Below, one piece after another: positions 8,214 to 32,763 of a DNA stretch of 64,000 nt (positions are counted from its first letter, which is position 1; every line of letters starts with the position of its first letter). Where the stretch lies: the NCBI RefSeq assembly GCF_002868715.1, contig NZ_PKLZ01000007.1, positions 1-64,000 of the forward strand, read 5' to 3'. This stretch comes from Kineobactrum sediminis (lineage in GTDB: Bacteria; Pseudomonadota; Gammaproteobacteria; Pseudomonadales; Halieaceae). Position numbers and translations under genes: made by a program. The notes beneath the pieces were generated by a model, which was not told where the DNA came from, ran no database searches, and was given only the letters and a program-made list of their open reading frames with translations.

Positions 8214-8254
8214 ACTATAGAAGATGCGGCAGAAACAAGCTTGATTAGGGTCAA
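8214..8254 (-). promoter_or_regulatory. Class II Fnr-type promoter driving the UrcA copy 2 gene
   Basis: On the minus strand the operator TTGAC-CCTA-ATCAA (8254-8241) is followed after 21 nt by TATAGT (8219-8214), a 5/6 match to TATAAT. The implied start site is about 8207, which puts the operator centre at -40.5, essentially the class II Fnr position. No good -35 hexamer is seen, as expected for an activator-dependent promoter. Confidence 0.65.
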
Positions 8255-9375: not shown

Positions 9376-9451
9376 AACTAGTCAGCTGCAGGAAATTTAA
9401 CGAAAAACAGTGCCATGGGTGGAGCTTCCTCCTGTGGCGAGGAGGGAACAG

Positions 9452-10171
9452 GTGTTAAAACCGATTACGGGTACTGGCCAGGACCGATCAATTGCACCTT
9501 ATCATTTTGCCAGAGCGGCATTGAAAGAGCGTACGGAAGAGGTTTCTGAAGTTGATGAACTATTCAGGACCAGCAAGGTAAAACACTTCCCGTCCAAGGA
9601 AGTGATTTACTGCGAAAACGACTGCGGCAATGGGGTCTACCTCATTCACAGCGGAATGGTGAAATTGGTAAGTTATTTGTCAAACGGTCGGGCTCGAATT
9701 GTACGCTTGCACAGCGACACCCACTGGTTTGGTCTCGAGGGCCTGGTCGATCAGGCCTATGAGCACACTGCGATTGCGGTTGGGAGTACCAGCGTCGTTT
9801 TCGTACCAATGAGCAGTATTCACCTGCTGGAACGTGAACATCCACAAAGATACTGTCGTTTGTTGAAACAGGGATATCGCCAACTCGCCCAGGCTGATAA
9901 ATGGATCGCGGATTTCTCCACCGGTCGCATTCAGTCACGAGTGGCACGATTGATCAGTTTCCTTTCGGAACTTGAATACGGGGATGCATCCGACAAGGTG
10001 GACCTGCTGACTGTGCATGAAATGGCGGATATGCTGGGTGCCACACCGGAGAGCGTCAGCCGGGTGCTGGCGAGCTTCAAGCGTAATGATATCCTGTATA
10101 CCCAGGGAGGCGCGGTACGCGAGAGCTATGGTATTGACGCGCAGAGGCTGCACTTCTTTGCCCAGCAGTAG
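9452..10171 (+). CDS. Crp/Fnr-family transcriptional regulator
   Basis: A 239-residue DNA-binding regulator with an N-terminal cyclic-nucleotide-type beta-barrel ('VIYCENDCGNGVYLIHSGMVKLV') and a C-terminal winged helix. The recognition helix 'TPESVSRVLASF' carries the E-x-x-S-R pattern that reads TTGA half-sites in Fnr. No N-terminal Fnr Cys cluster is present; Cys occurs only in 'YCENDC'. I choose the GTG at 9452 because GAGGAGGG lies 5 nt upstream; the in-frame ATG at 9410 has no ribosome site. The promoter has its own Fnr-type operator. The signal sensed is unknown. Confidence 0.83.
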   Translation: MLKPITGTGQDRSIAPYHFARAALKERTEEVSEVDELFRTSKVKHFPSKEVIYCENDCGNGVYLIHSGMVKLVSYLSNGRARIVRLHSDTHWFGLEGLVDQAYEHTAIAVGSTSVVFVPMSSIHLLEREHPQRYCRLLKQGYRQLAQADKWIADFSTGRIQSRVARLISFLSELEYGDASDKVDLLTVHEMADMLGATPESVSRVLASFKRNDILYTQGGAVRESYGIDAQRLHFFAQQ

Positions 10172-10174
10172 TGT

Positions 10175-12580
10175 TCACAGGGGCAGGTCTCGAGTCTCAC
10201 CGGGCGCAAGCGTGAAGGTCTCGCTCTTGACACCGACAGTAATCGGGTTCTCGCTGCAGGGTTGGGTGCCGATGGAAATGCGGTCTACGGTGACCCGCAG
10301 GTCGATAACCTGCTGTCTGTAGCGAATGTTCAGGCAGAGGCTGGTCAGTCCTTCTGGCAAGGTCGGATTAAACCACAAAACGTCGTCCCGGATCTCAATA
10401 CCTGTAAAGCAACGCTGGATAAGGTCGACAGTACCCGCCATGGCTCCGGTGTGAATGCCCTCCTGGGTAGTACCGCCCTGGATGTCGCCGACGTCACTTT
10501 CCAGCGCCTCTATGAAAAGTGGCCATGCACCCGGGCGATTTGAGCGCGCCAGTACCCACGAACTCACCGCGCGGCTCAGCGTAGAGCCATGGGATGTGCG
10601 CTGCATGTAGTAATCAATGTTGCGGGGGATAGTCTCGTACTCGAACGGGTAATCCAGCCGTCTGAACAGCACCTCCAGAACCTCTGCGGAGAGCAGGTAG
10701 AACAGCATCAGCACATCGGCCTGCTTGGACACCTGGTAATTATTGGGTGTATCGTCTTCCGCTTCCAGAATCCGGTCGAGGCGCTGGATGTCGCCGTATT
10801 TGCGTCGATAACCCTCCCAGTCAAAGGGAGCCAGTTTTTCGTATCCATCAAACTGACTGATGATGCCGTCGTCGTGAAACGGTACATAGAGTCTGTGGCT
10901 TAATTGATCCCAGTAAACCAGCTCCTCCGGTGACAGGCGAATGAGCTCGCAAACCTCGTCAAATCTTTTGGGGTCCAGAATGTCGCGTATTTCGAGTGCC
11001 CGGCAGAAGATCCATACCGCCATGATATTGGTATAGGCATTGTTATTCAGGCCCGGTTTGTCGGCGTCGGGATAGGCGTCATGGTATTCATCGGGTCCCA
11101 TGACATTGAGGATTTCGTAACGCCCCAGGGATTCGTTATAACTGGTGGCGCTGGCCCAGAACCGGGCTATTTCCATAACCATTTCCGCGCCGTAGAAAGA
11201 CATGAATTCCTTGTCGTTGGTTGCCTCGTAGTACTGCCAGACATTGTAGGCCACCGCTATATTGATGTGTCGCTGAAGCCTGGAGTTGTCAGGTATCCAA
11301 TTGCCTGACTTGGGGTTCAGGTGCACACGCTGGCTTTCCTCGCGGCCATTACTGCCACTCTGCCACGGGAACATCGCACCCCGATAGCCTTCGTCCTTCG
11401 CCGCTCGTCGCGCTTCGCCAAGCCGGTGGTAGCGATACCCCAGTAGCGCCCGGGTAATTTCCGGCATACGCAGGTTGAACAGCGGGAACACGAACAGTTC
11501 ATCCCAGAATATGTGGCCTCTGTATGCCTCGCCATGTAGTCCGCGAGCCGGCACACCAACGTCGAGATTCATGACATGGGGCGAAGTCGTCTGGATCAGG
11601 TGAAATATATGCAGCCGAAGGACCAGTTCCGAGCGTTTCTCTTCTTTTTTGTCATCGTGCTCGATATCAAAATCGAAGTGTTTCCACAACTGGCTCCAGC
11701 GCATGATATGACGATTGCAGAGGCCATCAAAACGGTCGGCATCGGCTACGGCTTTGCGGGCCTCAAGCGATGGCTCGCTAATGGCATAATCCCGGCCGGT
11801 ATACAGCGCCATCACCTTCTCGATATACAGGGGCTTGTCTCTGTCGAGACGGGTTGAGTAATAACAGGCAATATAATCATCTTCCTGGTGGGTACTGGAT
11901 CCCGGATAGACCTGTTGGTCAGCTTCAAAGAAGCGAGTGGTTGCCGCCAGGGCGATGCGGATATGCGATTGGTTGGTTTCGACGGTCAGCAGCATGGTAT
12001 CGTCGGCAACGGATTCCGTGCCCAGTCCCTGCAGGTGGCGGCTGGACAAGTCACGGTAGCGTGGAACTCCATCGTTTATTACCCGACCGTCGAGGGCACT
12101 GCATACTTCAATGCCGCCGCCCCAGTCTTCGGCTTTGATCTGCAAGGTCATGGCCGCAATATGTGGCTCATCCATTGATACCAGGCGCTGTTGCTCAATA
12201 CGGGTAGTGCGCTGGGCTTCGTCGCGGAAGCGGATAGTGCGGGTCAGGAGCCCGCGTTTTATATCCAGCTGCTGTTCGTAGTCAATTATCTCGGCATCAT
12301 CGAGATTAAACCAGTTGCCATCCTCGATCCGGAAATTGAGGGCCAACCAGTTGGGTGCATTTACCAGGCTCTCATTTTCAATGGTTTTTTCCGCAATAGT
12401 GTCCTGGAGCCGGTTGTAGCAGCCTGCGATATAGGTGCCTGGGTAATGAGTATCATCCGCGCTGGCCTCGGGCGCTGCGCCGCGACTGGCGAAATAACCG
12501 TTACCCAGAGTACACAGCGCTTCCCGCAGTGCCTCTTCCTCTTTAGTGAATTCGTTGTAAGAAAGGGTCCATGCTGTCAT
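10175..12580 (-). CDS. Glycoside hydrolase family 65 disaccharide phosphorylase (trehalose phosphorylase-like)
   Basis: A GH65 enzyme of 801 residues that would split an alpha-glucoside, most likely trehalose or trehalose 6-phosphate, with phosphate to give beta-glucose 1-phosphate. The family pattern is complete: 'GNGYFASRGA' near residue 30, 'FWDELFVFPLFNLRMPEI' and 'NVMGPDEYHDAY' with the catalytic acid Glu498, then 'LNNNAYTN'. Its start overlaps the stop of the upstream beta-phosphoglucomutase/phosphatase fusion by 4 bases (ATGA), so the two are translationally coupled. The partner consumes beta-glucose 1-phosphate, which supports phosphorolysis. Kojibiose or maltose as substrate cannot be excluded from sequence. 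Confidence 0.87.
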   Translation of the reverse strand: MTAWTLSYNEFTKEEEALREALCTLGNGYFASRGAAPEASADDTHYPGTYIAGCYNRLQDTIAEKTIENESLVNAPNWLALNFRIEDGNWFNLDDAEIIDYEQQLDIKRGLLTRTIRFRDEAQRTTRIEQQRLVSMDEPHIAAMTLQIKAEDWGGGIEVCSALDGRVINDGVPRYRDLSSRHLQGLGTESVADDTMLLTVETNQSHIRIALAATTRFFEADQQVYPGSSTHQEDDYIACYYSTRLDRDKPLYIEKVMALYTGRDYAISEPSLEARKAVADADRFDGLCNRHIMRWSQLWKHFDFDIEHDDKKEEKRSELVLRLHIFHLIQTTSPHVMNLDVGVPARGLHGEAYRGHIFWDELFVFPLFNLRMPEITRALLGYRYHRLGEARRAAKDEGYRGAMFPWQSGSNGREESQRVHLNPKSGNWIPDNSRLQRHINIAVAYNVWQYYEATNDKEFMSFYGAEMVMEIARFWASATSYNESLGRYEILNVMGPDEYHDAYPDADKPGLNNNAYTNIMAVWIFCRALEIRDILDPKRFDEVCELIRLSPEELVYWDQLSHRLYVPFHDDGIISQFDGYEKLAPFDWEGYRRKYGDIQRLDRILEAEDDTPNNYQVSKQADVLMLFYLLSAEVLEVLFRRLDYPFEYETIPRNIDYYMQRTSHGSTLSRAVSSWVLARSNRPGAWPLFIEALESDVGDIQGGTTQEGIHTGAMAGTVDLIQRCFTGIEIRDDVLWFNPTLPEGLTSLCLNIRYRQQVIDLRVTVDRISIGTQPCSENPITVGVKSETFTLAPGETRDLPL

Positions 12581-14142
12581 TCGTCACCGCCTTGGAGAAT
12601 ACTGGTCAGTCGTTTCAGGAAGATCTCGACTTCATCAGGGTTGGCCAGATGGTAGTTTGCGTGGGTAGGCTGCGGTTGTTCCGCAACCAGAATTCCAATC
12701 CCCTCGGTCTCGATTTCACGAAAGGCATCCTCATCAGTTACGTCATCACCAATATAGAGCGGAATGAAACGCTCGCTATCGAGACTCAGGGCCTGCATCA
12801 ACCAGCGCAGCGCCTGACCCTTGTCCCAGTCAATATCGGGCTGCAACTCGACGATTTTCTTGCCGGTGGTCATGCGCAGTTCCGGGTGATCAGCATGTAC
12901 CCCTGCCACGGTATCTTTGACGCCTTGAACATGATCCGGCGCAACCTGTCGATAATGTGTTGCGATCGAGAAATGCTTGCGTTCTACGCGCACTCCCGGA
13001 ACGTCGGCCAGTAAGTTGTTCAATTCATCCTCGGCGCGGTCCAGCACCGGCAAGTATGATCGACCTTCCTGGTATTGTGTGCGCTCGCCCCGGGGCCCGG
13101 CCATGTCAAAACCATGGCTGCCCGCGTACCATATGTTCTCCAGTGCAACACGCTTGCGTACATCTGCAAGATCCCTTCCGCTAATGATGGAAAGCTCACA
13201 AACCTCCGCCAGATCCTCCAGGGTTTTGCGCATGGTGTCGCTTAAGTTTGCATTATCAGGGTTATCTACTATTGGCGTGAGAGAGCCGTCGTAGTCGAGA
13301 AAAATAGCGAGTTCATGGTCGTTGCCCGGGTCAATCTCGTTCATGCAATCCAGTGCGGACGGTAAGTCCCTGGCGGCTGTGGCGTCAGAAGGCGAGGCCA
13401 CCCGGAGCTCTCCCAGGTCACTGACGACTATGTCCGCCCCATGCTTGAATAACGCTTCCTCATAGTCCCCACGATTGACACCGATAACACAACCGAAATC
13501 GGCGGCACGCAGTGACTCCACGCCGGAGCTCGCATCTTCGATGCCGACACAACGCTGTGGCTTGCTGGCAAGGCGGCGAGCCGCTTCAAGAAACATGTCG
13601 GGGGCCGGCTTACCCGGTAATTTGAGCAACTCAAGATCTACGCCATCCACCCGGGCTTCAAACAGGTCGCTAATACCGGCGGCTTCCAGCACTGCCTTGC
13701 AGTTCCGGCTCGATGAAACGATTGCCGTATGAATATCCGCGGCGTGTAATGCTTTTATCAGGGCGATGCTGCTGTCGTAAACGTTCACCCCATCACGCTT
13801 CAGCGTCTCGTTGAACAGTATGTTCTTGCGATTACCCAGCCCGCATATGGTTTCAGTATCGGGACTGTCTTTCTCATCACCATAGGGCAGCTCAATATCG
13901 CGTGACGCCAGAAAGCTGGCAACCCCGTCATAGCGCGGTTTACCGTCGACATAGTTGCGGTAATCCGTATCCATATCGAATGGTCTCGACTTGTCGGTAT
14001 GTGTGCCCAGATAGTCATCAAACATGCGTTTCCATGCCCGGGCATGCACCTCTGCCGTCTGGGTGATTACCCCGTCGAGATCAAAAATAACGGCATCGAA
14101 ATGCACCGGCGAAAGCGTCGTACTGGGATGCGGTTTGGTCAT
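12577..14142 (-). CDS. Beta-phosphoglucomutase / trehalose-6-phosphate phosphatase fusion
   Basis: A 521-residue protein with two HAD domains. Residues ~15-245 match beta-phosphoglucomutase: 'VIFDLDGVITQT' (nucleophile Asp21, Asp23), 'GNRKNILFNE', 'SSRNCKAVLEAAG' and 'GIEDASSGVESLRAA'. Residues ~270-515 match trehalose-6-phosphate phosphatase: 'IFLDYDGSLTPI' (Asp283, Asp285), 'ISGRDLADVRKRV', 'GSHGFD', 'WDKGQALRWL' and 'YIGDDVTDEDAF'. The fusion can supply trehalose from its 6-phosphate and turn the beta-glucose 1-phosphate made by the coupled GH65 enzyme into glucose 6-phosphate. The frame is open to ATG 14202, but I prefer ATG 14142: the first HAD motif follows at normal distance and 14202 falls on a palindromic operator. 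Confidence 0.88.
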   Translation of the reverse strand: MTKPHPSTTLSPVHFDAVIFDLDGVITQTAEVHARAWKRMFDDYLGTHTDKSRPFDMDTDYRNYVDGKPRYDGVASFLASRDIELPYGDEKDSPDTETICGLGNRKNILFNETLKRDGVNVYDSSIALIKALHAADIHTAIVSSSRNCKAVLEAAGISDLFEARVDGVDLELLKLPGKPAPDMFLEAARRLASKPQRCVGIEDASSGVESLRAADFGCVIGVNRGDYEEALFKHGADIVVSDLGELRVASPSDATAARDLPSALDCMNEIDPGNDHELAIFLDYDGSLTPIVDNPDNANLSDTMRKTLEDLAEVCELSIISGRDLADVRKRVALENIWYAGSHGFDMAGPRGERTQYQEGRSYLPVLDRAEDELNNLLADVPGVRVERKHFSIATHYRQVAPDHVQGVKDTVAGVHADHPELRMTTGKKIVELQPDIDWDKGQALRWLMQALSLDSERFIPLYIGDDVTDEDAFREIETEGIGILVAEQPQPTHANYHLANPDEVEIFLKRLTSILQGGDE

Positions 14143-14201
14143 GAGGATTCCATAGCGGATATTAATATCGACCATGATGGTGCTCCAGGTGTGTATGGTC
14201 A

Positions 14202-14215
14202 TTGAGAATTCTCAA
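14202..14215. promoter_or_regulatory. Perfect palindrome TTGAGAATTCTCAA, Crp/Fnr-like operator
   Basis: The site is a 14-bp perfect palindrome, 16 bp counting the flanking A/T. It lies between the divergent phosphatase-fusion and TVP38 genes and fits the core Fnr/FixK form TTGA-N6-TCAA. On the minus strand CATCAT (14179-14174, 4/6 to TATAAT) lies 22 nt away, the class II distance, which would serve the fusion/GH65 operon. The -10 match is weaker than at the other sites. Confidence 0.45.
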
Positions 14216-14314: not shown

Positions 14315-15064
14315 ATGGAGATGGAGTTGAAATTATTGGCACCGAATAGCGGGACCGGTTCTGCCGCCATGGGGATGGTGTTGAGCATATTGTTTGTTCT
14401 TTTAGTGCTGGGGCTTGTGTTTCTGTCTGGAGTCGATGAACGAATAACTGCGCTGCTGGTGTGGATAGAGCAACAGGGTCCGTGGGCAGGAATCCTGTTC
14501 ATGCTCCTCATGATACTGGTGACGCTGCTCCTGGTGCCCGGCATATTATTTACCACCGGCGCCGGTTTTGCCTTCGGTTTGCTCGAAGGTGTGGTGTACG
14601 TGGTTATCGGAACAACCCTGGGCGCCGTGCTCGCATTTCTGATTGCCCGTCACCTGATGGGCGAGCGCGCGGCGCAGTTTGTGCGATCGCATTCGCGTCT
14701 GCAGCATGTCAGCCAGGAACTTGTTCCCGAGGGCTGGAAGATCATCATGCTGACCAGGCTGGTTCCTTTTTTTCCTTTCAAGGTGTCCAATTATTTCTTT
14801 GGCCTTACCGGGTTTTCCTTGCGTGGATTCACCCTCGGGACGCTGGCAGGCATTATTCCCTTCTCCCTGCACAATGTATATCTGGGCTCAATCGCGGCGG
14901 ATATCGCTTTGCTGGGCGCCGGGGAATCCGCTTTCACGCCGCTGCAGTGGGCGCTATATGGCAGTGGCTTTATCGTGGTTGTCGTTCTTGTGCTGTACAT
15001 CAACCGCCTTGCGCGCCGTGCCCTGGCGCGCTACACCGATGACACTGAACCGGGAGAGGTATAA
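14315..15064 (+). CDS. TVP38/TMEM64 (DedA-like) membrane protein
   Basis: A 249-residue polytopic inner-membrane protein of the TVP38/TMEM64 (VTT/DedA) family. It has the hallmark 'LLVPGILFTTGAGFAFG' re-entrant segment (~75-92), 'LGAVLAFLIARHLMGERA', 'RLVPFFPFKVSNYFFGLT' and 'TLAGIIPFSLHNVYLGS'. Relatives act in lipid scrambling or lipid-carrier recycling. It shares its TAATG stop/start junction with the glycosidase gene that follows and heads a four-gene overlapping operon with a glycosyltransferase and a phosphatase-fold protein, which suggests lipid-linked sugar handling. Two in-frame ATGs (14315, 14321) are possible starts. Confidence 0.83.
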   Translation: MEMELKLLAPNSGTGSAAMGMVLSILFVLLVLGLVFLSGVDERITALLVWIEQQGPWAGILFMLLMILVTLLLVPGILFTTGAGFAFGLLEGVVYVVIGTTLGAVLAFLIARHLMGERAAQFVRSHSRLQHVSQELVPEGWKIIMLTRLVPFFPFKVSNYFFGLTGFSLRGFTLGTLAGIIPFSLHNVYLGSIAADIALLGAGESAFTPLQWALYGSGFIVVVVLVLYINRLARRALARYTDDTEPGEV

Positions 15065-22439: not shown

Positions 22440-25400
22440 ATGGCAGAACCCGTTGCAGATCACCTTTGGTACAAGGATGCAATTATTTACCAGTTACATG
22501 TGAAAGCGTTCAAGGACAGTAATAACGATGGCATAGGTGATTTCAAGGGCCTGATAGAGCAGCTGGATTACATCGCGGAGCTGGGCGTAAATACGCTCTG
22601 GTTGTTGCCCTTCTACCCATCGCCAATGCGCGACGACGGCTATGATATTGCCGAATACACAGGTATTCATTCCGATTACGGTACCCGGAAAGATTTCCGT
22701 AATTTCATGCGGGAGGCGCACCGTCGTAACCTGCGGGTAATTACCGAGCTGGTGATCAACCATACTTCTGACCAGCACCCCTGGTTCCAGGCGGCGAGAA
22801 AAGCGCCCGCCGACAGCAAAAAACGGGATTTTTATGTCTGGAGCAAGACTAACCAGAAATTCAGCGGTACCCGAATCATTTTCACCGACAGCGAGATCTC
22901 CAACTGGACGTGGGATGACGAGGCACAGGCATATTACTGGCATCGTTTCTTTCATCACCAGCCTGACCTTAATCACAATAACCCGGAGGTTGTAAAAGCA
23001 GTTATTCGGTTAATGCGATTCTGGCTGGATATGGGCGTCGATGGCCTGCGACTCGATGCCATTCCCTATTTGTGCGTACGGGAGGGTACCAGTAATGAAA
23101 ACCTGCCGGAAACGCATGCAGTGCTCAAATACATGCGGTCAGTAGTGGATGATCACTACCAGGATCGTGTTCTCCTGGCGGAAGCGAATCAGTGGCCAGA
23201 AGATGCCCAGGCCTATTACGGTGATGGTGACGAATGCCATATGGCCTATCACTTCCCCCTGATGCCGCGGATCTATATGGCGGTTGCACAGGAAGAGCGA
23301 CACCCTATTGTTGAAATAATGCAACAGACCCCGTCTATTCCCGACAGTTGCCAATGGGCCATATTTTTACGCAACCACGACGAGCTCACCCTGGAAATGG
23401 TTACTGATCGCGAGCGTGATTACATGTACGAGCGCTACGCGACGGATCCGAGAATGCGGATTAATGTAGGTATCCGCCGACGCCTCGCTCCCCTCATGGA
23501 CAATGACCAGGACAAGATAAAATTGATGAACAGTGTGCTGATGTCGATGCCGGGATCGCCCATTGTCTATTACGGTGATGAAATTGGCATGGGGGACAAC
23601 TTCTTTTTAGGTGATCGTAATGGAGTGCGTACTCCCATGCAGTGGTCTCCCGATCGCAATGCCGGATTCTCCAGAGCGGATCCACAATTCCTCTATCTGC
23701 CGCCAATTATGGACCCGGTATATGGCTACGAAGCTGTTAATGTAGAGGCGCATAAGCGCAAACCGTCATCCCTGTTGAACTGGATGAAGCGTCTGATTGC
23801 GATTCGCAGAGCTCACGCCACTTTCGGTAGGGGGTCTTTGGAGTTTCTACAGCCTGGTAATCGGAAAATACTCGCTTATGTGCGCGAATACGGCGATGAC
23901 TGCGTTTTGTGTGTGGCGAACCTGGCCCGCTCTGCACAGCCAGTGGAGCTGGATTTGTCGCGCTTCAGGGGAAGTGTGCCGATAGAGATGCTGGGCCGCA
24001 CCGCATTCCCGCCCATCGGCGATTTGCCGTATCTGCTGACATTACCCGGCCATGGCTTTTACTGGTTTGATCTGACGAGCGGCGCGGAAGCTCCGCCCTG
24101 GCACGAGGAAGCGCTGCCACCACCCGAGCTGCCGACGCTGGTATTTTTTGCGGGCTGGCGCAGTTTTTTCCCTGCTGAAGTGGAACCCGGGCGGAAAATG
24201 CTGGCGGAAAACCTCAGGTTGCAGCTTGAGCGGACAATACTGCCGGATTTTTTGCAGGCCCAGAGATGGTACGCAGAGAAGGGTCAATTGCTGCAGCGGG
24301 TAGATATCAGCGATATGCTGCTGTGGCCCGCGGAGGGCGGCGAGTGGCTATGGATGTGGGTGAATGCCTGTTTTGGCGACAGCAGCAGGCAGGCTTACCT
24401 GTTGCCGCTGGCCATGGCATGGGGAGAGCCGGAAGATGAAGCCGTCCGGCCCTTGCTGCCCTCAGCGCTCGCCCGGATTCGCCAGCAGGCACGTGCGGGG
24501 ATTGTCTATGATGCGGTTGCCGACGAGAGTTTTTTCCGCGCTATAGTCAGGGCAGTGCAGACGGGTGCAAGCGTTACAGGTCCGTCCGGAACACTGCGTT
24601 TTTGCGCCACACGGGCCTGCGCGGAGTTGGTCGATGATGCGCCTCTTAGCGGGCTCGGCAAGTCCTGGGTCGGGGGTAGCAACAGCACCGTGATCCTGGG
24701 TGACAGGTTGTTCCTGAAACTGTACCGGCGCGTCCACCAGGGTATCAACCCCGAGTTGGAAATGAGCCGTTTTTTGACGGACGTGGTTCACTACCCGAAT
24801 ATAGCACCGCTGGCGGGTTCGGTGGAATTTGAACACAGTAACGGAGCAACCAGTACTCTCGGGCTGGTGCAGGCTCATGTGCCCAACCAGGGAGACGGTT
24901 GGACATTTACAGTGGATTATCTCGAGCGCTTTTTCGAGGATTGCCTGACCAGGCCAGAGGGCGTGCCCCCGGACGGCGCTGAACGTCATGGCCAGTATCG
25001 CTGGATGGCGGAGATACTGGGCCAGCGGACCGGAGAACTGCATAGTGCGCTGGCGCAGCAAACGGGTGATCCCGACTTTGAACCTGAATCGATCGAACCG
25101 CAGGATCTCAAAGCGTGGAGTGACCGGGTAGCCGATGATGTTCATGGCACCCTGCTCGAGCTCGAAGCGCAGATCGACAATATAAAGCCTGCGTGGCAGC
25201 CCCTGGCCACAGAAATCCAGAGAAACAAGGCGCGTTTGCTGGCGCGGGTCGACAGTCTTGTACCTGAATCAGCCTCTGCGATGAAAACTCGCTACCACGG
25301 TGACTTTCACCTCGGCCAGGTCCTGTTGAATGCGAATGACGTGGTTATTATCGATTTTGAAGGTGAGCCGGCGCGATTGCCCACGGAGCGCCGACTGAAA

Positions 25401-25766
25401 CATTGCCCGCTACGCGATGTCGCGGGTATGTTGCGATCATTCAATTATGCCACCGGCGTTGCCCTGGCCAACAGTTCGGCCGCGCGGCCGGCTAACTACC
25501 AGGAACTACTGTCCTATGCCCGGGAGTGGGAGACGGTCGCGGTAGAGGCATTCCTTGCGGGTTACCGACGCGGGGTTCAGGGCTGCGCCTCCTGGCCCGG
25601 CGACGATGCCGTTGCAGGCCAACTGATAGAGCTTTTCGAGCTTGAAAAGGCGCTTTACGAACTGCGTTACGAGCTTGGTAATCGGGTTGATTGGGTCAAT
25701 ATCCCGCTGGAAGGGTTATTGAAGCTACTCACCGCAGCACCTGGACAGCTTGAGAGTCACTTGTGA
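22440..25766 (+). CDS. treS: Trehalose synthase-maltokinase fusion
   Basis: An 1108-residue two-enzyme protein. Residues ~1-550 are trehalose synthase (GH13), which interconverts maltose and trehalose: 'WYKDAIIYQLHVKAFKDSNNDG', nucleophile Asp206 in 'GLRLDAIPY', acid Glu248 in 'LLAEANQWP' and Asp314 in 'RNHDELT'. Residues ~600-1108 are maltokinase, which makes maltose 1-phosphate: 'LKLYRRVHQGINPELEMSRFL' and the kinase loop 'HGDFHLGQVLLN' (Asp955) with 'IIDFEGEPARLP'. GGAGAG precedes the ATG. It overlaps TreZ if the latter uses GTG 25763. Maltose 1-phosphate normally feeds GlgE, which is not in this window. Confidence 0.93.
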   Translation: MAEPVADHLWYKDAIIYQLHVKAFKDSNNDGIGDFKGLIEQLDYIAELGVNTLWLLPFYPSPMRDDGYDIAEYTGIHSDYGTRKDFRNFMREAHRRNLRVITELVINHTSDQHPWFQAARKAPADSKKRDFYVWSKTNQKFSGTRIIFTDSEISNWTWDDEAQAYYWHRFFHHQPDLNHNNPEVVKAVIRLMRFWLDMGVDGLRLDAIPYLCVREGTSNENLPETHAVLKYMRSVVDDHYQDRVLLAEANQWPEDAQAYYGDGDECHMAYHFPLMPRIYMAVAQEERHPIVEIMQQTPSIPDSCQWAIFLRNHDELTLEMVTDRERDYMYERYATDPRMRINVGIRRRLAPLMDNDQDKIKLMNSVLMSMPGSPIVYYGDEIGMGDNFFLGDRNGVRTPMQWSPDRNAGFSRADPQFLYLPPIMDPVYGYEAVNVEAHKRKPSSLLNWMKRLIAIRRAHATFGRGSLEFLQPGNRKILAYVREYGDDCVLCVANLARSAQPVELDLSRFRGSVPIEMLGRTAFPPIGDLPYLLTLPGHGFYWFDLTSGAEAPPWHEEALPPPELPTLVFFAGWRSFFPAEVEPGRKMLAENLRLQLERTILPDFLQAQRWYAEKGQLLQRVDISDMLLWPAEGGEWLWMWVNACFGDSSRQAYLLPLAMAWGEPEDEAVRPLLPSALARIRQQARAGIVYDAVADESFFRAIVRAVQTGASVTGPSGTLRFCATRACAELVDDAPLSGLGKSWVGGSNSTVILGDRLFLKLYRRVHQGINPELEMSRFLTDVVHYPNIAPLAGSVEFEHSNGATSTLGLVQAHVPNQGDGWTFTVDYLERFFEDCLTRPEGVPPDGAERHGQYRWMAEILGQRTGELHSALAQQTGDPDFEPESIEPQDLKAWSDRVADDVHGTLLELEAQIDNIKPAWQPLATEIQRNKARLLARVDSLVPESASAMKTRYHGDFHLGQVLLNANDVVIIDFEGEPARLPTERRLKHCPLRDVAGMLRSFNYATGVALANSSAARPANYQELLSYAREWETVAVEAFLAGYRRGVQGCASWPGDDAVAGQLIELFELEKALYELRYELGNRVDWVNIPLEGLLKLLTAAPGQLESHL

Positions 25767-25780
25767 GGCGGCGTCATACG

Positions 25781-27604
25781 ATGCCTTTTGGTGCGCACGT
25801 CGTTGATGAAGCGCGAGTACGATTTCGACTGTGGGCGCCCGCCGCCAGCGAGGTCGCAGTCTGCTTGCAGGTGGACACCGGAGAGCGAGTCCTCGCCATG
25901 ACCCCGGAAGGCGATGGCTGGTTCGCCCTGCTGACAACCGAGGCCGGGCCGGGTAGCCGTTACTGGTACCTTATCGACAACGATCTGCGAATACCTGACC
26001 CCGCATCACGCTTCCAGCCTGAAGATGTGGAAGGCCCCAGCCAGGTAGTCAATCCGCTATCGTGGGAGTGGCTCGATTCCAGCTGGCGCGGTCGCGCCTG
26101 GGAGGAAGTCGTTCTTTATGAACTGCACATCGGCACTTTCACCCCGGCCGGGAACTTTGCGGGGGTGTGTGAACGGTTGGACTATCTGGTTGGTCTTGGC
26201 ATCAGTGCCATAGAGATCATGCCGGTCGCGGATTTCCCCGGTGACCGCAACTGGGGATATGACGGGGTGTTGCCTTTTGCGCCCGACAGCAGCTATGGCG
26301 ATCCCGATGAGTTCAAGGCGTTGATTCAGGCAGCCCACGAGCGCGGCTTAATGGTATTTCTCGATGTCGTATACAACCACTTTGGTCCCCTTGGCAATTA
26401 TCTGCATCAGTATGCACCGCAGTTTTTCAGTAGCCGCCACCATACGCCCTGGGGGGCAGCAATAAATTTCGACGACGAGCACAGTGACACGGTACGCCGG
26501 TTCTTCATCCACAACGCTTTATACTGGATTGAGGAATTCAACCTGGATGGATTGCGACTTGACGCAGTGCACGCGATCGTTGATGACTCTTACCCGGATA
26601 TTCTCGAAGAGCTGGCGGCGGCTGTAAACAATGGGCCTGGCCAGGAACGGCATGTACACCTTGTGCTGGAGAACGATAATAATATCGCCCGCTATATGCA
26701 ACGCGATAACGATGAATCTGCGCGCCAGTATGTTGCGCAGTGGAACGATGATATTCACCACGCCTTGCATATCCTGCTTACGGGGGAAACGGACGGCTAC
26801 TACTCCGACTACGAACAGTTGCCGGGCTGGTATCTGGGACGTTGTCTTGCGCATGGCTTTGGTTATCAGGGCGAAATGTCGGGTTTTCGTGGTGCTCGAC
26901 GTGGTGAGCCCAGTACGGAATTACCGGCCGCCAGTTTCGTTTCATTCCTGCAGAACCACGATCAGGTGGGTAATCGGGCCCTTGGGGAACGTATTAACGC
27001 ACTGACCGGTGACAGGCAGGTCCAGGTGGCGGCCGCCATATTATTACTTGCGCCGGCGCCGCCCTTATTGTTTATGGGCCAGGAATTTGGGGCTACCCAG
27101 CCTTTCCAGTATTTCTGTTCGTTTACCGGGGACATGGCAGAGGCAGTGACCCGGGGACGACGAGAGGAATTTTCCCACTTCGCCCAGTTCAGTGACCCGA
27201 CTGCACGAGACCGTATCCCCGATCCCAATGCCGTGGATACTTTCCGGAACAGCAAGCTCGACTGGGCCGATTTGCTGGAGCCGGACCATGCGCAATGGCT
27301 GGCATTTTACCAGGAGCTGTTGCGTCTTCGACAAACAGAGATAATTCCGCGCGCAACGGGTGTCGGGGCGGGTGAATTCCTGTTACTGGGTGCAAACGCG
27401 GTGTGGGTGCAGTGGCAGCTGGCAGAGGGTTCAGTGCTGACCCTCATCGCCAATATCGGTGATTCACCAGTGTCTGTGAGCGATGATACGGGGGCCAGGG
27501 CACGCGTCCTTTATGCCCAGCCTCCCGCACTGGCAGCGGAGCTCGCGGCGCACAGGCTGCCGCCCTGGTCCCTGCGCTGGACCCTTCAGGAAGCAGGGAA
27601 ATGA
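25781..27604 (+). CDS. treZ: Malto-oligosyltrehalose trehalohydrolase
   Basis: A GH13 enzyme of about 607 residues that cuts trehalose off the end of maltooligosyl-trehalose made by TreY. An N-terminal CBM48-like domain ('VRFRLWAPAASEVAV') precedes the barrel with 'ELHIGTFTPAGNF', 'WGYDGV', nucleophile Asp261 in 'GLRLDAVHAI', acid Glu297 in 'LVLENDNN' and 'FLQNHDQVGNRA'. ATG 25781 with GAGGCGG about 9 nt upstream is preferred; GTG 25763 would add six residues and overlap the treS stop. Its stop overlaps the start of the MalQ-TreY fusion by 4 bases, so the TreZ/TreY pair is co-translated. Confidence 0.93.
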   Translation: MPFGAHVVDEARVRFRLWAPAASEVAVCLQVDTGERVLAMTPEGDGWFALLTTEAGPGSRYWYLIDNDLRIPDPASRFQPEDVEGPSQVVNPLSWEWLDSSWRGRAWEEVVLYELHIGTFTPAGNFAGVCERLDYLVGLGISAIEIMPVADFPGDRNWGYDGVLPFAPDSSYGDPDEFKALIQAAHERGLMVFLDVVYNHFGPLGNYLHQYAPQFFSSRHHTPWGAAINFDDEHSDTVRRFFIHNALYWIEEFNLDGLRLDAVHAIVDDSYPDILEELAAAVNNGPGQERHVHLVLENDNNIARYMQRDNDESARQYVAQWNDDIHHALHILLTGETDGYYSDYEQLPGWYLGRCLAHGFGYQGEMSGFRGARRGEPSTELPAASFVSFLQNHDQVGNRALGERINALTGDRQVQVAAAILLLAPAPPLLFMGQEFGATQPFQYFCSFTGDMAEAVTRGRREEFSHFAQFSDPTARDRIPDPNAVDTFRNSKLDWADLLEPDHAQWLAFYQELLRLRQTEIIPRATGVGAGEFLLLGANAVWVQWQLAEGSVLTLIANIGDSPVSVSDDTGARARVLYAQPPALAAELAAHRLPPWSLRWTLQEAGK

Positions 27605-30600
27605 CTATGCATGACGTGCTTGAGCGTCTTGGCCGGCGTTATGGTATCACCTCTGAATACAGCGATATCTGGGGTCAGCGGCATTCGACATCAACCCAAA
27701 CCCAAAGAGCGCTGCTCGCCGCCATGGGCGTTCCCACAGCGACCGACGATGCACTGGTTGCCGCGCTTGACGCTTTGGAGACCTCGGACTTACAGCGATT
27801 GTTGCCCGCGGTGCGGGTCGTGCGTGACGATGAGAGCTCCTTTCCGATTAACATCGGTGTCCCCGGAAAGAACGCTCATCATCGTTTTCACTGGCGCTTG
27901 TTCTACGAAGACGGTGCCGAAGAGGATGGTGATTTTTCGCCTGCCGATCTCAGGCTGCTAAGCGAGGACACGTGCGGGGATACTCAATGGCAGCGGTATG
28001 AGTTAACACTGTCTGGCGTAACCCGGACCGGTTACCACCGGCTGGAAGTCTATGATACCGAATTGCCGGAGACAAGCCCGGCGCAAATGTCCCTTATCGT
28101 TGCTCCGGGCGCCTGTTATCAACCCGAGGCAGTGCGCAACGACGGCCGGGTCTGGGGTATTGCGGCACAACTGTACGCGGTTCGCTCGGCGCGAAACTGG
28201 GGTATTGGGGATTACACCGATTTGCGCCGGTTACTGGCCGTTGCTGCCCAGGCAGGTGCCGACCTGGTGGGGCTCAATCCGCTGCATGCCCTGTTCCCCC
28301 ATAATCCGGCTCACAACAGCCCCTATAGCCCCTCCAGCCGTTTATTCCTGAACATCCTGTACCTTGATATAGAAGCAATAGCAGATTTTGTTGAGTGCGA
28401 AAAAGCACGAGTCCATACGGCACAGGAAGACTTCCAGGCGCGTTTGCGTGCCCTGCGTGCCTCCGAGCATGTGGATTACGTTGAAGTATCACGTATTAAA
28501 ATCGAAGTACTGCAGATGCTCTATCGGTCTTTTCGCCAAATGCACCTGGAGCAGGAGACGGAACGCGCCGGGGACTTTCGACGCTTCCGCGAACAGCAGG
28601 GTAGCGCGCTTCGGGAGCACGCACTTTATGAGGCGCTACAGGCCCACTTTCATGCTGATGACGCATCCATCTGGGGTTGGCCGGTGTGGCCGGAAGCCTG
28701 GCGCTCCCCGATCGGGGAGCCGGTTGATACGTTTGCATCGGAGCACGAAACGGAGGTCATGTTTTATGAATATTGCCAGTGGCAGGCGGACGTGCAATTG
28801 CAGTCTGCGGCCGAAGACTCCCACAGTGCGGGTATGGGAGTTGGCATTTACCAGGATCTCGCGGTTAGCGTTGATGTGGCCGGCGCCGAAGCCTGGATTC
28901 ACCAGGATCTTTATGCCTCCGAAGCCAGGATAGGATCCCCCGCTGATGATTTCAATCTCAACGGGCAGGATTGGGGCTTGCCTCCCTGGCGGCCGGAGGC
29001 TTTGCGGGAACAGGGATATGCGCCATTCATCGCGACCTTGCGCCAGAACATGCGTCATGCCGGCGCCCTCCGCATAGATCATGTCATGGCGCTTATGAGA
29101 CTGTTCTGGATACCGCTGGGTGAGCCGGCAACAACCGGCGCTTATGTGAACTACCCTTTTTCGGACATGCTCGGAATCGTAGCCCTGGAAAGCCAGCGTA
29201 ACCAGTGTCTGGTGATTGGCGAGGATCTGGGGACGGTGCCCGATGAAGTTCGCGAGGCGCTGGGGCCGCTTGGAGTGCTGTCTTACCGCCTGCTGTACTT
29301 TGAAAAAGGTCACCAGGGCTGTTTCAAGGCACCTGAAGAATTTGAACAGCAGGCACTGGTGGCCGTCACCACCCATGATCTCCCGACCCTGGCAGGTTTC
29401 TGGCAGGGGTACGATCTGGAATTGCGTGAACGACTTGGCCTGTTCCCCACACCCGAATTACGAGAGCGACAGATTATAGGGCGAGCGGAAGACCGGGCAC
29501 GGTTGTTGATGGCGCTGGAGCGGGAAAGCCTGTTACCTGCCGGGATGACTGTACAGCCGGTAGCAACCCCGGCGATGACACCGGAACTCGCCTGCGCTGT
29601 GCACCGCTACCTCGCGCGAACGCCTTCCCGGGTAATGATGATACAGGCAGAAGACATGCTCGGCGAAGTGGCGCAGGTCAATATGCCGGGCACTACCGAT
29701 GAGCATCCCAACTGGAGTCGAAAGCTGCTACTGGACTGCGAGTTGTGGGAGCAGGATCCGCACATTCGCGCCCTGTTCAGCATACTGCGCGGTGAACGTG
29801 GCGCCCCGATGGCCCCCACCAGTTTGTCGACTTCTGTCGAGGCGACAACGCGAACTGCCATTATTCCCCGCAGCACCTATCGGTTGCAGTTGCACAGTGG
29901 TTTTACCTTTCGCGACGCAGCGCTAATTGTTCCCTACCTGCAACAACTTGGCATCAGTCACTGTTATAGCTCTCCGTGCCTGCAGGCGCGTCCGGGAAGC
30001 CCTCACGGCTACGATATTATCAACCATAACCGGTTAAACCCCGAGCTTGGAGGTGAACAGGGATTCGATCATCTCAGCGACGTTCTAAAGGCGCATGACA
30101 TGTCGCTGATCATGGATATGGCGCCGAATCATATGGGCATCATGGGCAGTGATAACTCCTGGTGGCTCGATGTTCTGGAAAATGGTGTGGCCTCGAATTA
30201 TGCAACTTTTTTTGATATTGACTGGACGCCACTAAAGGACAGCTTGCGCGGCAAAGTACTGTTACCAGTGCTGGGTGACCATTACGGGACGACTCTTGAG
30301 CTGGGTGAATTAACCCTAGCCCTGGACGCGCAGCGTGGTGAACTGTCTATTCATTATTACGAGCACCGGTTTCCACTCGACCCTCAGCAATACCCCCAGC
30401 TGCTGGATCATGATATTGCTCGCCTGGAAGAGCGACTGGGCACCGATGATACGCGTTTGCTTGCGCTGCAGAGTCTTGTTACCGCACTGGCCAAGTTGCC
30501 GGCACACACGACCGCCCTCGAATCGGAGCGCACCGAGAGAGCGCGCGACAAGGAAGTCCACAAGGCCAATCTGGCGCGTCTGTATGAAGATGCTGATATC

Positions 30601-32763
30601 GCCTGTTTCATTGATGAAAATCTCGATGAATTCAACAGCCCGACAGGTATTGAGTTAATGGATAAGCTGCTGGACAGCCAGGCATGGCGGCTTGCCTATT
30701 GGCGCGTGGCTTCAGACGAAATCAATTATCGGCGTTTTTTTGATATTAATGACCTGGCCGGCGTGCGTATGGAAGTTCCCGAGGTTTTCGAAGCGACCCA
30801 TGCGCTGGTACTGGATCTCGTGGCAGCGGGTAAAGTACAGGGACTGCGTATCGACCATCCCGACGGTCTGTATGACCCCGCCGCCTATTTTAAGCATGTA
30901 CAGGCGCGTGTACGCGCACCGACGCAGGTAATGGTGGGCGATTCCCCGGTCACATCCGCGCCGGGATCGCCGATTCCGGATGAAGCCAAACCCCTGTATA
31001 TGCTGGTGGAAAAAATTCTTGCCAGACACGAGCGGCTTCATCAGGACTGGGCCGTATATGGTACAACCGGCTACGAATTCTCCAATCTGGTGGACAACCT
31101 GTTTGTGGATAGTGAAGGCGAAACGAGAATTGACGCTATTTACCAGGAATTTACCGGTGAAAAAACCGCACCGAATGATCTGGTGTACGACTGCAAAAAA
31201 CTGATAATACGCACAGCACTCGCCAGTGAGCTTAATGTACTGGCGCAGCAACTCGGTCGTATTGCAGAGCTGGAGCGGCATACCCGTGACTTCACCCTGA
31301 GCAGTTTACGGGAAGCGTTAGCGGACATTGTGGCGTGGTTCCCGGTTTACCGGACTTACGTGACCGGTGCCGGGGCCATGCAGGAAGACCGTCACTACCT
31401 GAACTGGGCAGTGAACATCGCCAAGAAAAAAAGCCCCGCAGCGGATACCCTGGTATTCGATTTTGTACGTGAAGTCTTACTCACCGACATTGCAGAGGGC
31501 AAGAGTGAAGACTATCGTCAGCGCGTGGTGGCCTTTGCGATGAAGTTCCAGCAATACACCGGCCCGGTTATGGCAAAGGGCCTTGAGGATACCGCGTTTT
31601 ATCGTTACAACCGTCTGCTGTCGCTCAATGAAGTCGGCAGTGAGCCGGATCGTTTCGGGCTATCGGTGGCCGCTTTTCATTTCCAGAGCCAGCAACGGCT
31701 GGAGAACTGGCCGCATGCGATGCTCAGCACCTCCACCCACGATAGTAAACGCAGTGAAGATGTGCGTTCGAGAATTAACGTGCTATCGGAAATAACGAGT
31801 CAGTGGGCAGCGAAGGTGCGGCGCTGGGCCCGCCTCAATGCGGGCAAGAAACGCTCGCTTGAGAATACTGAAGCGCCTTCCAGAAACGATGAATATTTGC
31901 TGTACCAGACCCTGGTGGGGGCATGGCCTGTACAGCCGATGGATGAACAGGCCCTGTCCGGATTCCGCGAACGTATCCAGGCTTACATGAACAAGGCGAT
32001 CAAGGAAGCCAAGGTTCACACCTCCTGGATAAACCCGGACAGTGACTACGAAGATGCGGTTGCCGGATTCATTGATGCACTGCTGGAACCTGCCGGCAGC
32101 AACACTTTCAGTAAATCCTTTTTGCCATTTCAGCAGCAGGTGAGTCGTGTGGCGATGTTTGCCGGTTTGTCGCGCACACTACTCAAGCTTACCGCTCCCG
32201 GGGTGCCGGACTTTTACCAGGGCAACGAGCTATGGGAGTTCCGCCTGGTTGACCCTGACAATCGCCAACCGATTGACTACGAACGGCGTGCAACGCTGCT
32301 GGCAGAGCTGCAGGATCAGGCAAGCGCGGCGGAGAGCCTGGCTGGGTTCACGCGAGAGCTGGTCCAGCAGATCGATGACGGGCGTGCCAAATTGTATCTG
32401 GTATGGCGCGGCCTGCAGGCGCGTCTTGCAAGTCCCGAGGTGTTTCATAGCGGGAGCTACCAGCCGCTTGGTACATTCGGCGAACGAGCCGACAATCTCT
32501 GCGTCTTTGCGCGGAATCACGGCCAGACATGGCTGCTGGTGGTAGTGCCCCGGCTGTTGTTCGGGCTGGCCGCAGAATGCGATCCCCTCGGGGATGATGT
32601 GTGGGGCGACACCCGGTTAGAGGTGCCCGTCGCAGACTGGCTTGACCTGCTGACCGATGAAACTCACCAGGGCACCCGTGTTGACGATGGCTGGTGCCTG
32701 CCTGTGGGTAGGGTGCTGGGTCATTTTCCGGTCGCGTTGCTTTTATCAGACACCCCACACTGA
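27601..32763 (+). CDS. 4-alpha-glucanotransferase / malto-oligosyltrehalose synthase fusion (MalQ-TreY)
   Basis: A 1720-residue fused enzyme. Residues ~1-745 are GH77 amylomaltase, with 'VWGIAAQLYAVRSARNWGIGDYTDL', Asp493 in 'LRIDHVMALMRLFWIP', Glu541 in 'IGEDLGTVP' and Asp593 in 'THDLPTLAGFW'. Residues ~753-1720 are TreY (GH13), starting at 'IIPRSTYRLQLHSGFTF' and carrying 'SPCLQARPGSPHGYD', Asp1085 in 'GLRIDHPDGLYDP' and 'MAKGLEDTAFYRYNRL'. The first half rearranges maltodextrins into longer chains; the second turns the reducing-end linkage into trehalose for TreZ to release. There is no stop or frameshift at the junction. The start overlaps treZ by 4 bases. Confidence 0.93.
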   Translation: MTMHDVLERLGRRYGITSEYSDIWGQRHSTSTQTQRALLAAMGVPTATDDALVAALDALETSDLQRLLPAVRVVRDDESSFPINIGVPGKNAHHRFHWRLFYEDGAEEDGDFSPADLRLLSEDTCGDTQWQRYELTLSGVTRTGYHRLEVYDTELPETSPAQMSLIVAPGACYQPEAVRNDGRVWGIAAQLYAVRSARNWGIGDYTDLRRLLAVAAQAGADLVGLNPLHALFPHNPAHNSPYSPSSRLFLNILYLDIEAIADFVECEKARVHTAQEDFQARLRALRASEHVDYVEVSRIKIEVLQMLYRSFRQMHLEQETERAGDFRRFREQQGSALREHALYEALQAHFHADDASIWGWPVWPEAWRSPIGEPVDTFASEHETEVMFYEYCQWQADVQLQSAAEDSHSAGMGVGIYQDLAVSVDVAGAEAWIHQDLYASEARIGSPADDFNLNGQDWGLPPWRPEALREQGYAPFIATLRQNMRHAGALRIDHVMALMRLFWIPLGEPATTGAYVNYPFSDMLGIVALESQRNQCLVIGEDLGTVPDEVREALGPLGVLSYRLLYFEKGHQGCFKAPEEFEQQALVAVTTHDLPTLAGFWQGYDLELRERLGLFPTPELRERQIIGRAEDRARLLMALERESLLPAGMTVQPVATPAMTPELACAVHRYLARTPSRVMMIQAEDMLGEVAQVNMPGTTDEHPNWSRKLLLDCELWEQDPHIRALFSILRGERGAPMAPTSLSTSVEATTRTAIIPRSTYRLQLHSGFTFRDAALIVPYLQQLGISHCYSSPCLQARPGSPHGYDIINHNRLNPELGGEQGFDHLSDVLKAHDMSLIMDMAPNHMGIMGSDNSWWLDVLENGVASNYATFFDIDWTPLKDSLRGKVLLPVLGDHYGTTLELGELTLALDAQRGELSIHYYEHRFPLDPQQYPQLLDHDIARLEERLGTDDTRLLALQSLVTALAKLPAHTTALESERTERARDKEVHKANLARLYEDADIACFIDENLDEFNSPTGIELMDKLLDSQAWRLAYWRVASDEINYRRFFDINDLAGVRMEVPEVFEATHALVLDLVAAGKVQGLRIDHPDGLYDPAAYFKHVQARVRAPTQVMVGDSPVTSAPGSPIPDEAKPLYMLVEKILARHERLHQDWAVYGTTGYEFSNLVDNLFVDSEGETRIDAIYQEFTGEKTAPNDLVYDCKKLIIRTALASELNVLAQQLGRIAELERHTRDFTLSSLREALADIVAWFPVYRTYVTGAGAMQEDRHYLNWAVNIAKKKSPAADTLVFDFVREVLLTDIAEGKSEDYRQRVVAFAMKFQQYTGPVMAKGLEDTAFYRYNRLLSLNEVGSEPDRFGLSVAAFHFQSQQRLENWPHAMLSTSTHDSKRSEDVRSRINVLSEITSQWAAKVRRWARLNAGKKRSLENTEAPSRNDEYLLYQTLVGAWPVQPMDEQALSGFRERIQAYMNKAIKEAKVHTSWINPDSDYEDAVAGFIDALLEPAGSNTFSKSFLPFQQQVSRVAMFAGLSRTLLKLTAPGVPDFYQGNELWEFRLVDPDNRQPIDYERRATLLAELQDQASAAESLAGFTRELVQQIDDGRAKLYLVWRGLQARLASPEVFHSGSYQPLGTFGERADNLCVFARNHGQTWLLVVVPRLLFGLAAECDPLGDDVWGDTRLEVPVADWLDLLTDETHQGTRVDDGWCLPVGRVLGHFPVALLLSDTPH

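What the first reader, a model, noticed from the sequence alone, without database searches (positions are those of the whole stretch)
10175..14142. Beta-phosphoglucomutase fused to trehalose-6-phosphatase, coupled to a GH65 phosphorylase
One protein joins two HAD enzymes and is translationally coupled (ATGA) to a GH65 phosphorylase. Together they can run trehalose 6-phosphate to trehalose, to glucose plus beta-glucose 1-phosphate, to glucose 6-phosphate, so a complete trehalose breakdown route sits in two genes. A phosphatase that makes trehalose and a mutase that removes its phosphorolysis product on one chain is an unusual pairing and may channel intermediates or set a futile-cycle switch.
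Basis: partly seen in the sequence, partly recalled or inferred. Interest (0 to 1): 0.62.

Follow-up and report, generated by a model that had tools for sequence, protein, structure and literature searches.

The report
Possible nucleotide-free trehalose synthesis gene pair
Two overlapping bacterial genes encode three enzymes that meet at the sugar trehalose 6-phosphate, and in bacteria lacking the usual enzyme for making it they may build trehalose straight from glucose 6-phosphate without spending a nucleotide sugar.

Summary
In detail: a beta-PGM-type HAD domain and a trehalose-6-phosphate phosphatase (TPP) share one chain (12577-14202, minus strand), overlapping a GH65 gene (10175-12580) by ATGA. 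The GH65 falls with trehalose-6-phosphate (T6P) phosphorylases, not trehalose phosphorylases: five of six published specificity positions match (SQGQDE; T6P DQGQDE, trehalose TRIGPP), and the T6P-type structure 9lb6 is its nearest tree reference and best sequence and fold match. So phosphatase and phosphorylase share T6P as substrate. The set is not rare: 62 further fetched loci have TPP and GH65, 60 in the order PGM, TPP, GH65, as three genes, two genes or one chain (as, from recall, in M. tuberculosis OtsB1, function unknown). The window's genome has no GT20 (OtsA) and no PF02378 PTS EIIC, so the only recognised T6P source is the GH65 running backwards. Best reading: 2 G6P -> T6P -> trehalose without nucleotide sugar. 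Direction is inferred: 37 of 55 genomes with the set do have GT20, and this genome also has TreS, TreZ and TreY. FNR-type sites mark the region.

The parts
12577..14202 (-). Fused beta-PGM-type HAD + trehalose-6-phosphate phosphatase, 541 aa from the first ATG (532 or 521 aa if the start is 14175 or 14142)
13405..14097 (-). beta-PGM-type HAD domain (about aa 36-266); D41/D43, T47, H53, R90, S163, K198, E222/D223
   Evidence: roles of single residues recalled from Lactococcus beta-PGM
12601..13308 (-). Trehalose-6-phosphate phosphatase domain (about aa 299-534); D303/D305, R343, E407, K409, H416, R418, K461, D486/D487
10175..12580 (-). GH65 of the T6P-phosphorylase type, 801 aa; general acid E498; phosphate-site candidates R354, S666, T667, H710; specificity positions S71, Q407, G409, Q417, D431, E606
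12577..12580 (-). ATGA overlap of the two frames
14202..14215 (-). Perfect palindrome TTGAGAATTCTCAA just before the fusion gene; FNR/Crp-like half sites, candidate operator
9410..10171 (+). Crp/FNR-family regulator gene converging on the GH65 gene (3 nt between the stops)
22440..32763 (+). Context: TreS-maltokinase (22440-25766), TreZ (25763-27604), MalQ-TreY (27601-32763), frames overlapping by 4 nt

Best explanation
The two genes encode three enzymes that meet at trehalose 6-phosphate. The GH65 is a reversible T6P phosphorylase (T6P + Pi <-> glucose 6-phosphate + beta-glucose 1-phosphate). The first HAD domain interconverts beta-G1P and G6P. The second HAD domain hydrolyses T6P to trehalose and makes the route one-way. 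In this genome, which has no T6P synthase (GT20) and no PF02378 PTS EIIC, the set most likely runs 2 G6P -> T6P -> trehalose + 2 Pi: trehalose synthesis without UDP- or ADP-glucose, about one ATP cheaper than OtsA-OtsB. It sits near TreS, TreZ and TreY, perhaps under FNR/Crp-type control. Shown by computation: domains, motifs, overlap, GH65 subgroup, absence of GT20 and PF02378, neighbours. Inferred: substrate, direction, saving, regulation.
For: GH65 group: code SQGQDE against DQGQDE of a tested T6P phosphorylase and TRIGPP of trehalose phosphorylase. Tree: 55 TPP-linked GH65s lie in one 58-row set (SH-aLRT 99) whose next row is 9lb6 (100), apart from GH65s of other codes beside a PGM without coupled TPP. 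Best sequence match 9lb6, 487 bits against 368 for kojibiose phosphorylase; best fold match 9lb6, Z 43.0 against 38.9. GH65 in TPP loci: 58 of 59 readable have Q at position 392; the exception, L114, is kojibiose-type and not coupled. T6P source: no GT20, single TPP, single GH65, no PF02378 EIIC. Control: in the class sample (369 genomes) all 41 with a non-fusion TPP have GT20, while 4 of 7 with the fusion lack it (Fisher p 1.8e-4, counted after seeing the data; G011's GH65 is not T6P-type, so 4 of 6 true sets). Phylum sample of 396: TPP without GT20 in 4 of 136 (G000, G477, G621, G701); G477 has the set with a 4-nt overlap. T6P synthesis by such enzymes is real chemistry: a Caldithrix GH65 made T6P from beta-G1P + G6P (PMC8537180) and a Lactococcus enzyme in a cocktail gave 93% molar yield (PMC13121652). 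A TPP makes sense for synthesis; for T6P breakdown it would be a leak (argument, not data).
Against: 37 of 55 distinct genomes with the set have GT20 over cut-off, so it is not a general OtsA replacement. This genome already has TreS and TreY/TreZ, so it does not need the route for trehalose; trehalase and TreT were not sought. T6P-type GH65s also occur beside PGM without TPP (L083, L084, L129, L133) or with neither within 4 kb (L130), and two PGM-GH65 genes without TPP (L129; L136 with the variant code HQGP) lie near phosphoketolase, aldolase or glyceraldehyde-3-phosphate dehydrogenase genes, which fits sugar breakdown. Code position 64 is S, not D; position 416 read as W in one of four alignments. 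9lb6 is a long branch whose place the tree program calls unsure, and its record is named T6P hydrolase or phosphatase, not phosphorylase. G621 has a TPP with neither GT20 nor GH65, so an orphan TPP does not require this set. PF02378 does not cover every PTS family. No activity, metabolite or expression data.
Confidence: 0.5

Rival explanations
1. T6P disposal: T6P made elsewhere (OtsA) is broken down by the GH65 and the mutase to two G6P for energy, with the phosphatase as a second exit that keeps T6P low.
For: 37 of 55 distinct genomes with the set have GT20. T6P phosphorylase followed by a phosphoglucomutase is the known T6P degradation route (PMC12125463 passage). PGM-GH65 without TPP near phosphoketolase and glycolytic genes. 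Universal stress proteins are the commonest neighbour family (5 of 104).
Against: The window's genome has no GT20 and no PF02378 EIIC to make T6P; a phosphatase wastes the phosphate that phosphorolysis saves (argument).
Confidence: 0.25
2. One reading: TPP makes trehalose, GH65 phosphorolyses it to glucose and beta-G1P, and the mutase gives G6P.
For: Family-level domains allow it; a glucokinase lies beside a relative's mutase-GH65 gene and among the 104 neighbours (one).
Against: GH65 code and tree position are T6P-type. GH65s of the same scan whose code begins TR or SR, which I take as trehalose-type, sit beside a PGM without TPP (8 rows). No recognised T6P source for the TPP in this genome.
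Confidence: 0.08
3. The phosphatase and GH65 act on another phosphorylated alpha-glucoside, not T6P, made by a glycosyltransferase outside GT20.
For: GT20 absent; a GT4 gene lies at 17310-18599; Nitrobacter has an HAD-IIB hydrolase gene after its PGM-GH65 gene and no TPP within 4 kb.
Against: TPP domain is well above the trehalose-phosphatase equivalog cut-off and its cap residues E407, K409, H416, R418 are kept in 59 to 62 of 62; GH65 code nearly equals that of a tested T6P phosphorylase.
Confidence: 0.12

Closest known systems
M. tuberculosis OtsB1 (Rv2006)
   Same: Domain order PGM-like HAD, TPP, GH65 (recalled). One-chain relatives from Nocardia and non-tuberculous Mycobacterium (open frames of 1217-1491 aa) fall in the same GH65 set, mostly with code SQGQDE.
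   Different: One chain there, two overlapping genes here. Actinobacterial TPP domains have R or H at K448 (18 of 62) and some have a decayed PGM part. Its function is called unknown, with only OtsB2 active as phosphatase (PMC11046441 passage); a later paper calls OtsB1 uncharacterised and says the no-activity claim gave no data (PMC12090744 passage).
T6P phosphorylase of Lactococcus lactis (TrePP, EC 2.4.1.216) with beta-PGM
   Same: GH65 T6P group (by code) and a partner mutase; reversible T6P reaction.
   Different: There it breaks down T6P made by a PTS (recalled; review passage); here a TPP is added and GT20 and PF02378 EIIC are absent.
OtsA-OtsB trehalose synthesis
   Same: Ends with T6P phosphatase.
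   Different: T6P would be made by a phosphorylase from beta-G1P, not from a nucleotide sugar by GT20.
In vitro T6P synthesis with a GH65 phosphorylase (PMC13121652, 2026, called new-to-nature)
   Same: T6P made from beta-G1P + G6P by a T6P phosphorylase.
   Different: Beta-G1P comes there from maltose phosphorylase; here from G6P by the mutase, and T6P is then dephosphorylated.

Membership tests
GH65 T6P phosphorylase (EC 2.4.1.216) | GH65 N, central and C domains with general acid Glu | tested here: met
   E498 in GPDEYH, kept in 58 of 58 readable relatives
GH65 T6P phosphorylase (EC 2.4.1.216) | Phosphate site (Lys, His, two Ser in solved GH65 phosphorylases, PMC8626586) | tested here: inconclusive
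   H710 and S666 present, second Ser is Thr667, Lys is Arg354; same residues as in 9lb6; residue equivalence is my reading of the alignments
GH65 T6P phosphorylase (EC 2.4.1.216) | Code DQGQDE at CsKP positions 64, 392, 394, 402, 416, 585 | tested here: inconclusive
   SQGQDE: five of six; S at 64 in 24 of 62 relatives, D in 37, E in 1; position 416 read as W in one of four alignments
GH65 T6P phosphorylase (EC 2.4.1.216) | Phosphorolysis or synthesis of T6P | not testable with these tools
   needs purified protein
GH65 trehalose phosphorylase (EC 2.4.1.64) | Code TRIGPP | tested here: not met
   SQGQDE
Kojibiose hydrolase (NF053734) | Curated cut-off | tested here: not met
   182.5 bits against 800
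Trehalose-phosphatase (OtsB, TIGR00685) | Curated cut-off and HAD motifs | tested here: met
   193.7 against 68 bits; D303/D305, K461, D486/D487
beta-PGM family hydrolase (TIGR02009) | Curated cut-off | tested here: met
   179 against 153 bits
beta-phosphoglucomutase equivalog (TIGR01990) | Curated cut-off | tested here: not met
   116 against 189 bits: filed only at the TIGR02009 level; mutase activity is inferred
OtsB1-type triple enzyme | Three domains on one chain | tested here: not met
   two overlapping genes; same domain order (order in OtsB1 recalled)

The most novel reading that the evidence does not exclude
A natural, nucleotide-sugar-free route to trehalose: beta-PGM, T6P phosphorylase in reverse and T6P phosphatase, spread over many bacterial phyla and some archaea as one, two or three genes, used where ATP is short (low oxygen or starvation), and the unrecognised function of OtsB1-type proteins.
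Probability: 0.4. Interest if true: 0.75.

Novelty: new variant of a known kind. Interest (0 to 1): 0.57.

Why it matters
If right, trehalose synthesis has a further route needing only G6P, saving about one ATP equivalent per trehalose, and the OtsB1-type protein, called of unknown function in 2024, gets a concrete activity to test: T6P phosphorylase joined to the enzymes on either side of it. It would also explain what use some bacteria with a T6P phosphatase but no T6P synthase have for it, and would correct labels such as 'putative trehalose/maltose hydrolase' for Rv2006 (PMC2867773 table).

Tried and rejected
'Replaces OtsA everywhere': rejected, 37 of 55 distinct genomes with the set have GT20. 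Conserved neighbourhood as a clue to direction: genes like the window's TreS in 4, TreZ in 1 and MalQ-TreY in 3 of 64 loci, within the DNA held; neighbour families too mixed. FNR-type box before the set as a general rule: only 2 of 61 other loci have it (0.3 expected). The unannotated 749-aa neighbour: AlphaFold model useless (mean pLDDT 36), no PDB sequence match at E below 0.1. A basic residue as T6P phosphate binder: only R386 was basic in all 59 T6P-group rows and rarely so outside; not taken further. Literature: searches found no paper holding all terms; others (14 papers; 1; 4; 34) gave listings in which no title or abstract start suggests a natural synthesis route of this kind, but most of those texts are unread. 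Of the 34 papers I saw passages or sections of six (PMC13121652, PMC12125463, PMC8537180, PMC8626586, PMC8950772, PMC3518184). The library holds open-licence papers only.

Rows dropped before counts: the tree left out L116 (same genome as L051), L079 (frame broken), and L039, L046, L047, L058, L080, L085 (cut GH65). The OtsA count used 50 loci plus 6 class genomes; six loci with TPP and GH65 (L076, L082, L096, L100, L108, L109) and L114 were left out, and L051 repeats G266. Weak GT20 matches below cut-off in G410 and G412 were counted as absent. L090 and L091, two GT20-free genomes with different labels, have nearly the same GH65, so they are not independent. Most record titles name metagenome bins, whose missing genes may be missing data. 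Of 117 neighbour proteins computed, 104 were scanned. In the phylum sample I fetched the surroundings of four TPPs only, so further sets there were not sought.
Full report
WHAT IS THERE. They overlap by ATGA. Both HAD active sites look intact, and the Asp pairs are kept in all readable relatives (PGM 57 of 57, TPP 61 of 61). The mutase half passes the family model TIGR02009 but not the stricter beta-PGM equivalog TIGR01990. Best PDB sequence matches are 5gvx for aa 202-534 (250 bits) and 8h5s for aa 32-266 (205 bits); that these are M. tuberculosis OtsB2 and Rv3400 is recalled.

WHAT THE GH65 IS. A published analysis of GH65 (PMC8537180; introduction, results and tables read) gives a six-position code. 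Trehalose phosphorylase is TRIGPP, kojibiose phosphorylase EEAPxx, T6P phosphorylase DQGQDE, and the T6P prediction was verified for a Caldithrix enzyme that made T6P from beta-G1P and G6P. The window reads SQGQDE (aa 71, 407, 409, 417, 431, 606; position 416 read as W in the smaller alignment, where 9lb6 read the same). Best PDB sequence match is 9lb6 (487 bits; kojibiose phosphorylase 368), and the AlphaFold model (mean pLDDT 82) fits 9lb6 best (Z 43.0, next 38.9). The record names of 9lb6 disagree (T6P hydrolase, T6P phosphatase from Weissella ceti); it is a GH65 fold with code DQGQDK (DQGQDE), and I take it as a T6P phosphorylase. Stretches 51-72 and 408-432, which hold four of the six code positions, were modelled with low confidence, so the model adds fold, not specificity.

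HOW WIDESPREAD. Of the fetched loci, 62 besides the window have TPP and GH65. Layouts: PGM-TPP + GH65 in 30, all in one chain in 18 (plus 3 whose mutase part was not matched), three genes in 8, PGM + TPP-GH65 in 2, one divergent pair (L048). Among the 30, L116 repeats L051 and L114 has a kojibiose-type GH65 on the other side of the fusion; L079 (among the 2) is frame-broken. The order PGM, TPP, GH65 held in 60 of 62 (not L048 and L114). Hosts include Pseudomonadota, Thermodesulfobacteriota, Bacteroidota, Actinomycetota, Chloroflexota, Planctomycetota and two archaeal bins. Public plasmid records annotate the pair as otsB and 'glycosyl hydrolase family 65 protein'. So the fusion itself is not rare.

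SAME SUBSTRATE FOR TPP AND GH65. Of 59 TPP loci readable at position 392, 58 have Q; the exception is L114. In the tree of 76 GH65s (quick method, SH-aLRT only) all 55 TPP-linked rows lie in one 58-row set next to 9lb6, with three PGM-only rows inside; 9lb6 is a long branch, so its place is unsure. Rows with codes beginning TR or SR (8, taken as trehalose-like) and kojibiose-like rows from the same scans lie outside. T6P-type GH65s without a TPP also exist (L083, L084, and plasmids L129, L130, L133).

WHERE T6P COMES FROM. The window's genome (99.99% complete) has one TPP, one GH65, no GT20 and no PF02378 EIIC. In the class sample every one of 41 genomes with a non-fusion TPP has GT20, against 3 of 7 with the fusion (Fisher p 1.8e-4, counted after seeing the data). 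Dropping G011, whose GH65 is kojibiose-type, 4 of 6 lack it. In a phylum sample of 396 genomes (95% completeness asked for), 136 have a TPP match and 132 of these have GT20. The four without are the window, G477 (which has the set), G621 (plain TPP, no GH65) and G701 (a TPP match below cut-off). Among 55 distinct genomes with the set, 37 have GT20 over cut-off and 18 do not; by title two of the 18 are named isolates (Thioalkalivibrio thiocyanoxidans ARh2, Legionella saoudiensis). Three of the 18 have an EIIC. G004 (97% complete, one-chain form) has no GT20, TreY, TreS or EIIC match; TreT was not sought. The window's own genome does have TreS and TreZ/TreY, in the window itself.

HOW IT MOST LIKELY WORKS. 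With no other recognised T6P maker, the phosphatase has an obvious job only if the GH65 makes T6P: G6P -> beta-G1P (mutase), beta-G1P + G6P -> T6P + Pi (GH65), T6P -> trehalose + Pi (phosphatase, one-way). PMC13121652 (passages and one section) reports a Lactococcus T6P phosphorylase driving T6P synthesis with an equilibrium constant of 760 as the authors give it (quoted both for the overall reaction and for the last step), and 3 ATP per T6P for the synthase route. From two G6P the present route would need 2 ATP, which is my inference. The same enzymes could run T6P breakdown in genomes that have OtsA.

CONTROL AND SETTING. Five exact FNR-type sites TTGAYNNNNRTCAA lie in the window against 0.19 expected, reached in 0 of 100 shuffles: before a Crp-type regulator (9334), before treS (22282), before a second regulator (35624), before an aldolase (37112) and at 8241. 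A related palindrome lies directly before the fusion gene (14202-14215). G242 and G011 have such a site before the fusion too, but they are the only 2 of 61 other loci. M. tuberculosis OtsB1 is listed in the DosR (hypoxia) regulon (PMC2867773 and PMC12090744 passages). A low-oxygen or low-energy role is a lead, not a result.

KNOWN OR NEW. All three enzyme kinds are known, and so is the OtsB1 protein, whose function the 2024 review calls unknown (PMC11046441 passage). A natural synthesis route of this kind did not turn up in the searches, which cover open-licence papers only and whose hits I mostly saw as listings. I rate it a new variant of a known kind.

Noticed in passing
window 8241, 9334, 22282, 35624, 37112 (and 14202-14215): Five exact FNR/Anr/Dnr-type sites TTGAYNNNNRTCAA against 0.19 expected, four of them before regulator, trehalose and aldolase genes: a likely oxygen- or NO-controlled sugar island.
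   Followed up: partly
window 15064-17313 (+): 749-aa protein in a chain of 4-nt gene overlaps with a GT4 and a phosphodiesterase-like gene; no Pfam or NCBIfam match, about 25% identity to two plasmid proteins; single-sequence AlphaFold failed.
   Followed up: partly
L132 (Rubrobacter radiotolerans plasmid 2): otsB, T6P-type GH65 and a polyphosphate kinase 2 gene in a row: suggests polyphosphate-linked supply.
   Followed up: no
L129 (Nitrobacter hamburgensis plasmid 2): glucokinase, PGM-GH65 (T6P-type code) fusion, HAD-IIB hydrolase, glycosidase, phosphoketolase in a row.
   Followed up: no
TPP domains of L057, L059, L063, L065, L066, L068-L072, L074, L076, L077, L079, L082, L096, L100, L109: K448 of the TPP domain is R or H in these 18 of 62, all labelled Nocardia, Mycobacterium, Rhodococcus or other actinobacteria; some (L074, L076, L077, L082) also lost mutase residues.
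   Followed up: partly
L069, L090/L091: Record labels do not fit: a 'Bifidobacterium breve' bin whose GH65 groups with Mycobacterium; an 'Anaerolineae' and an 'Alphaproteobacteria' bin with nearly identical GH65.
   Followed up: no
PDB 9lb6/9lb7: A Weissella ceti GH65 structure is named T6P hydrolase in one field and T6P phosphatase in another; its code suggests T6P phosphorylase.
   Followed up: no
G621:C54:5821-6720 (L127): Stand-alone TPP gene in a genome given as 100% complete with neither GT20 nor GH65: a second kind of orphan TPP.
   Followed up: partly
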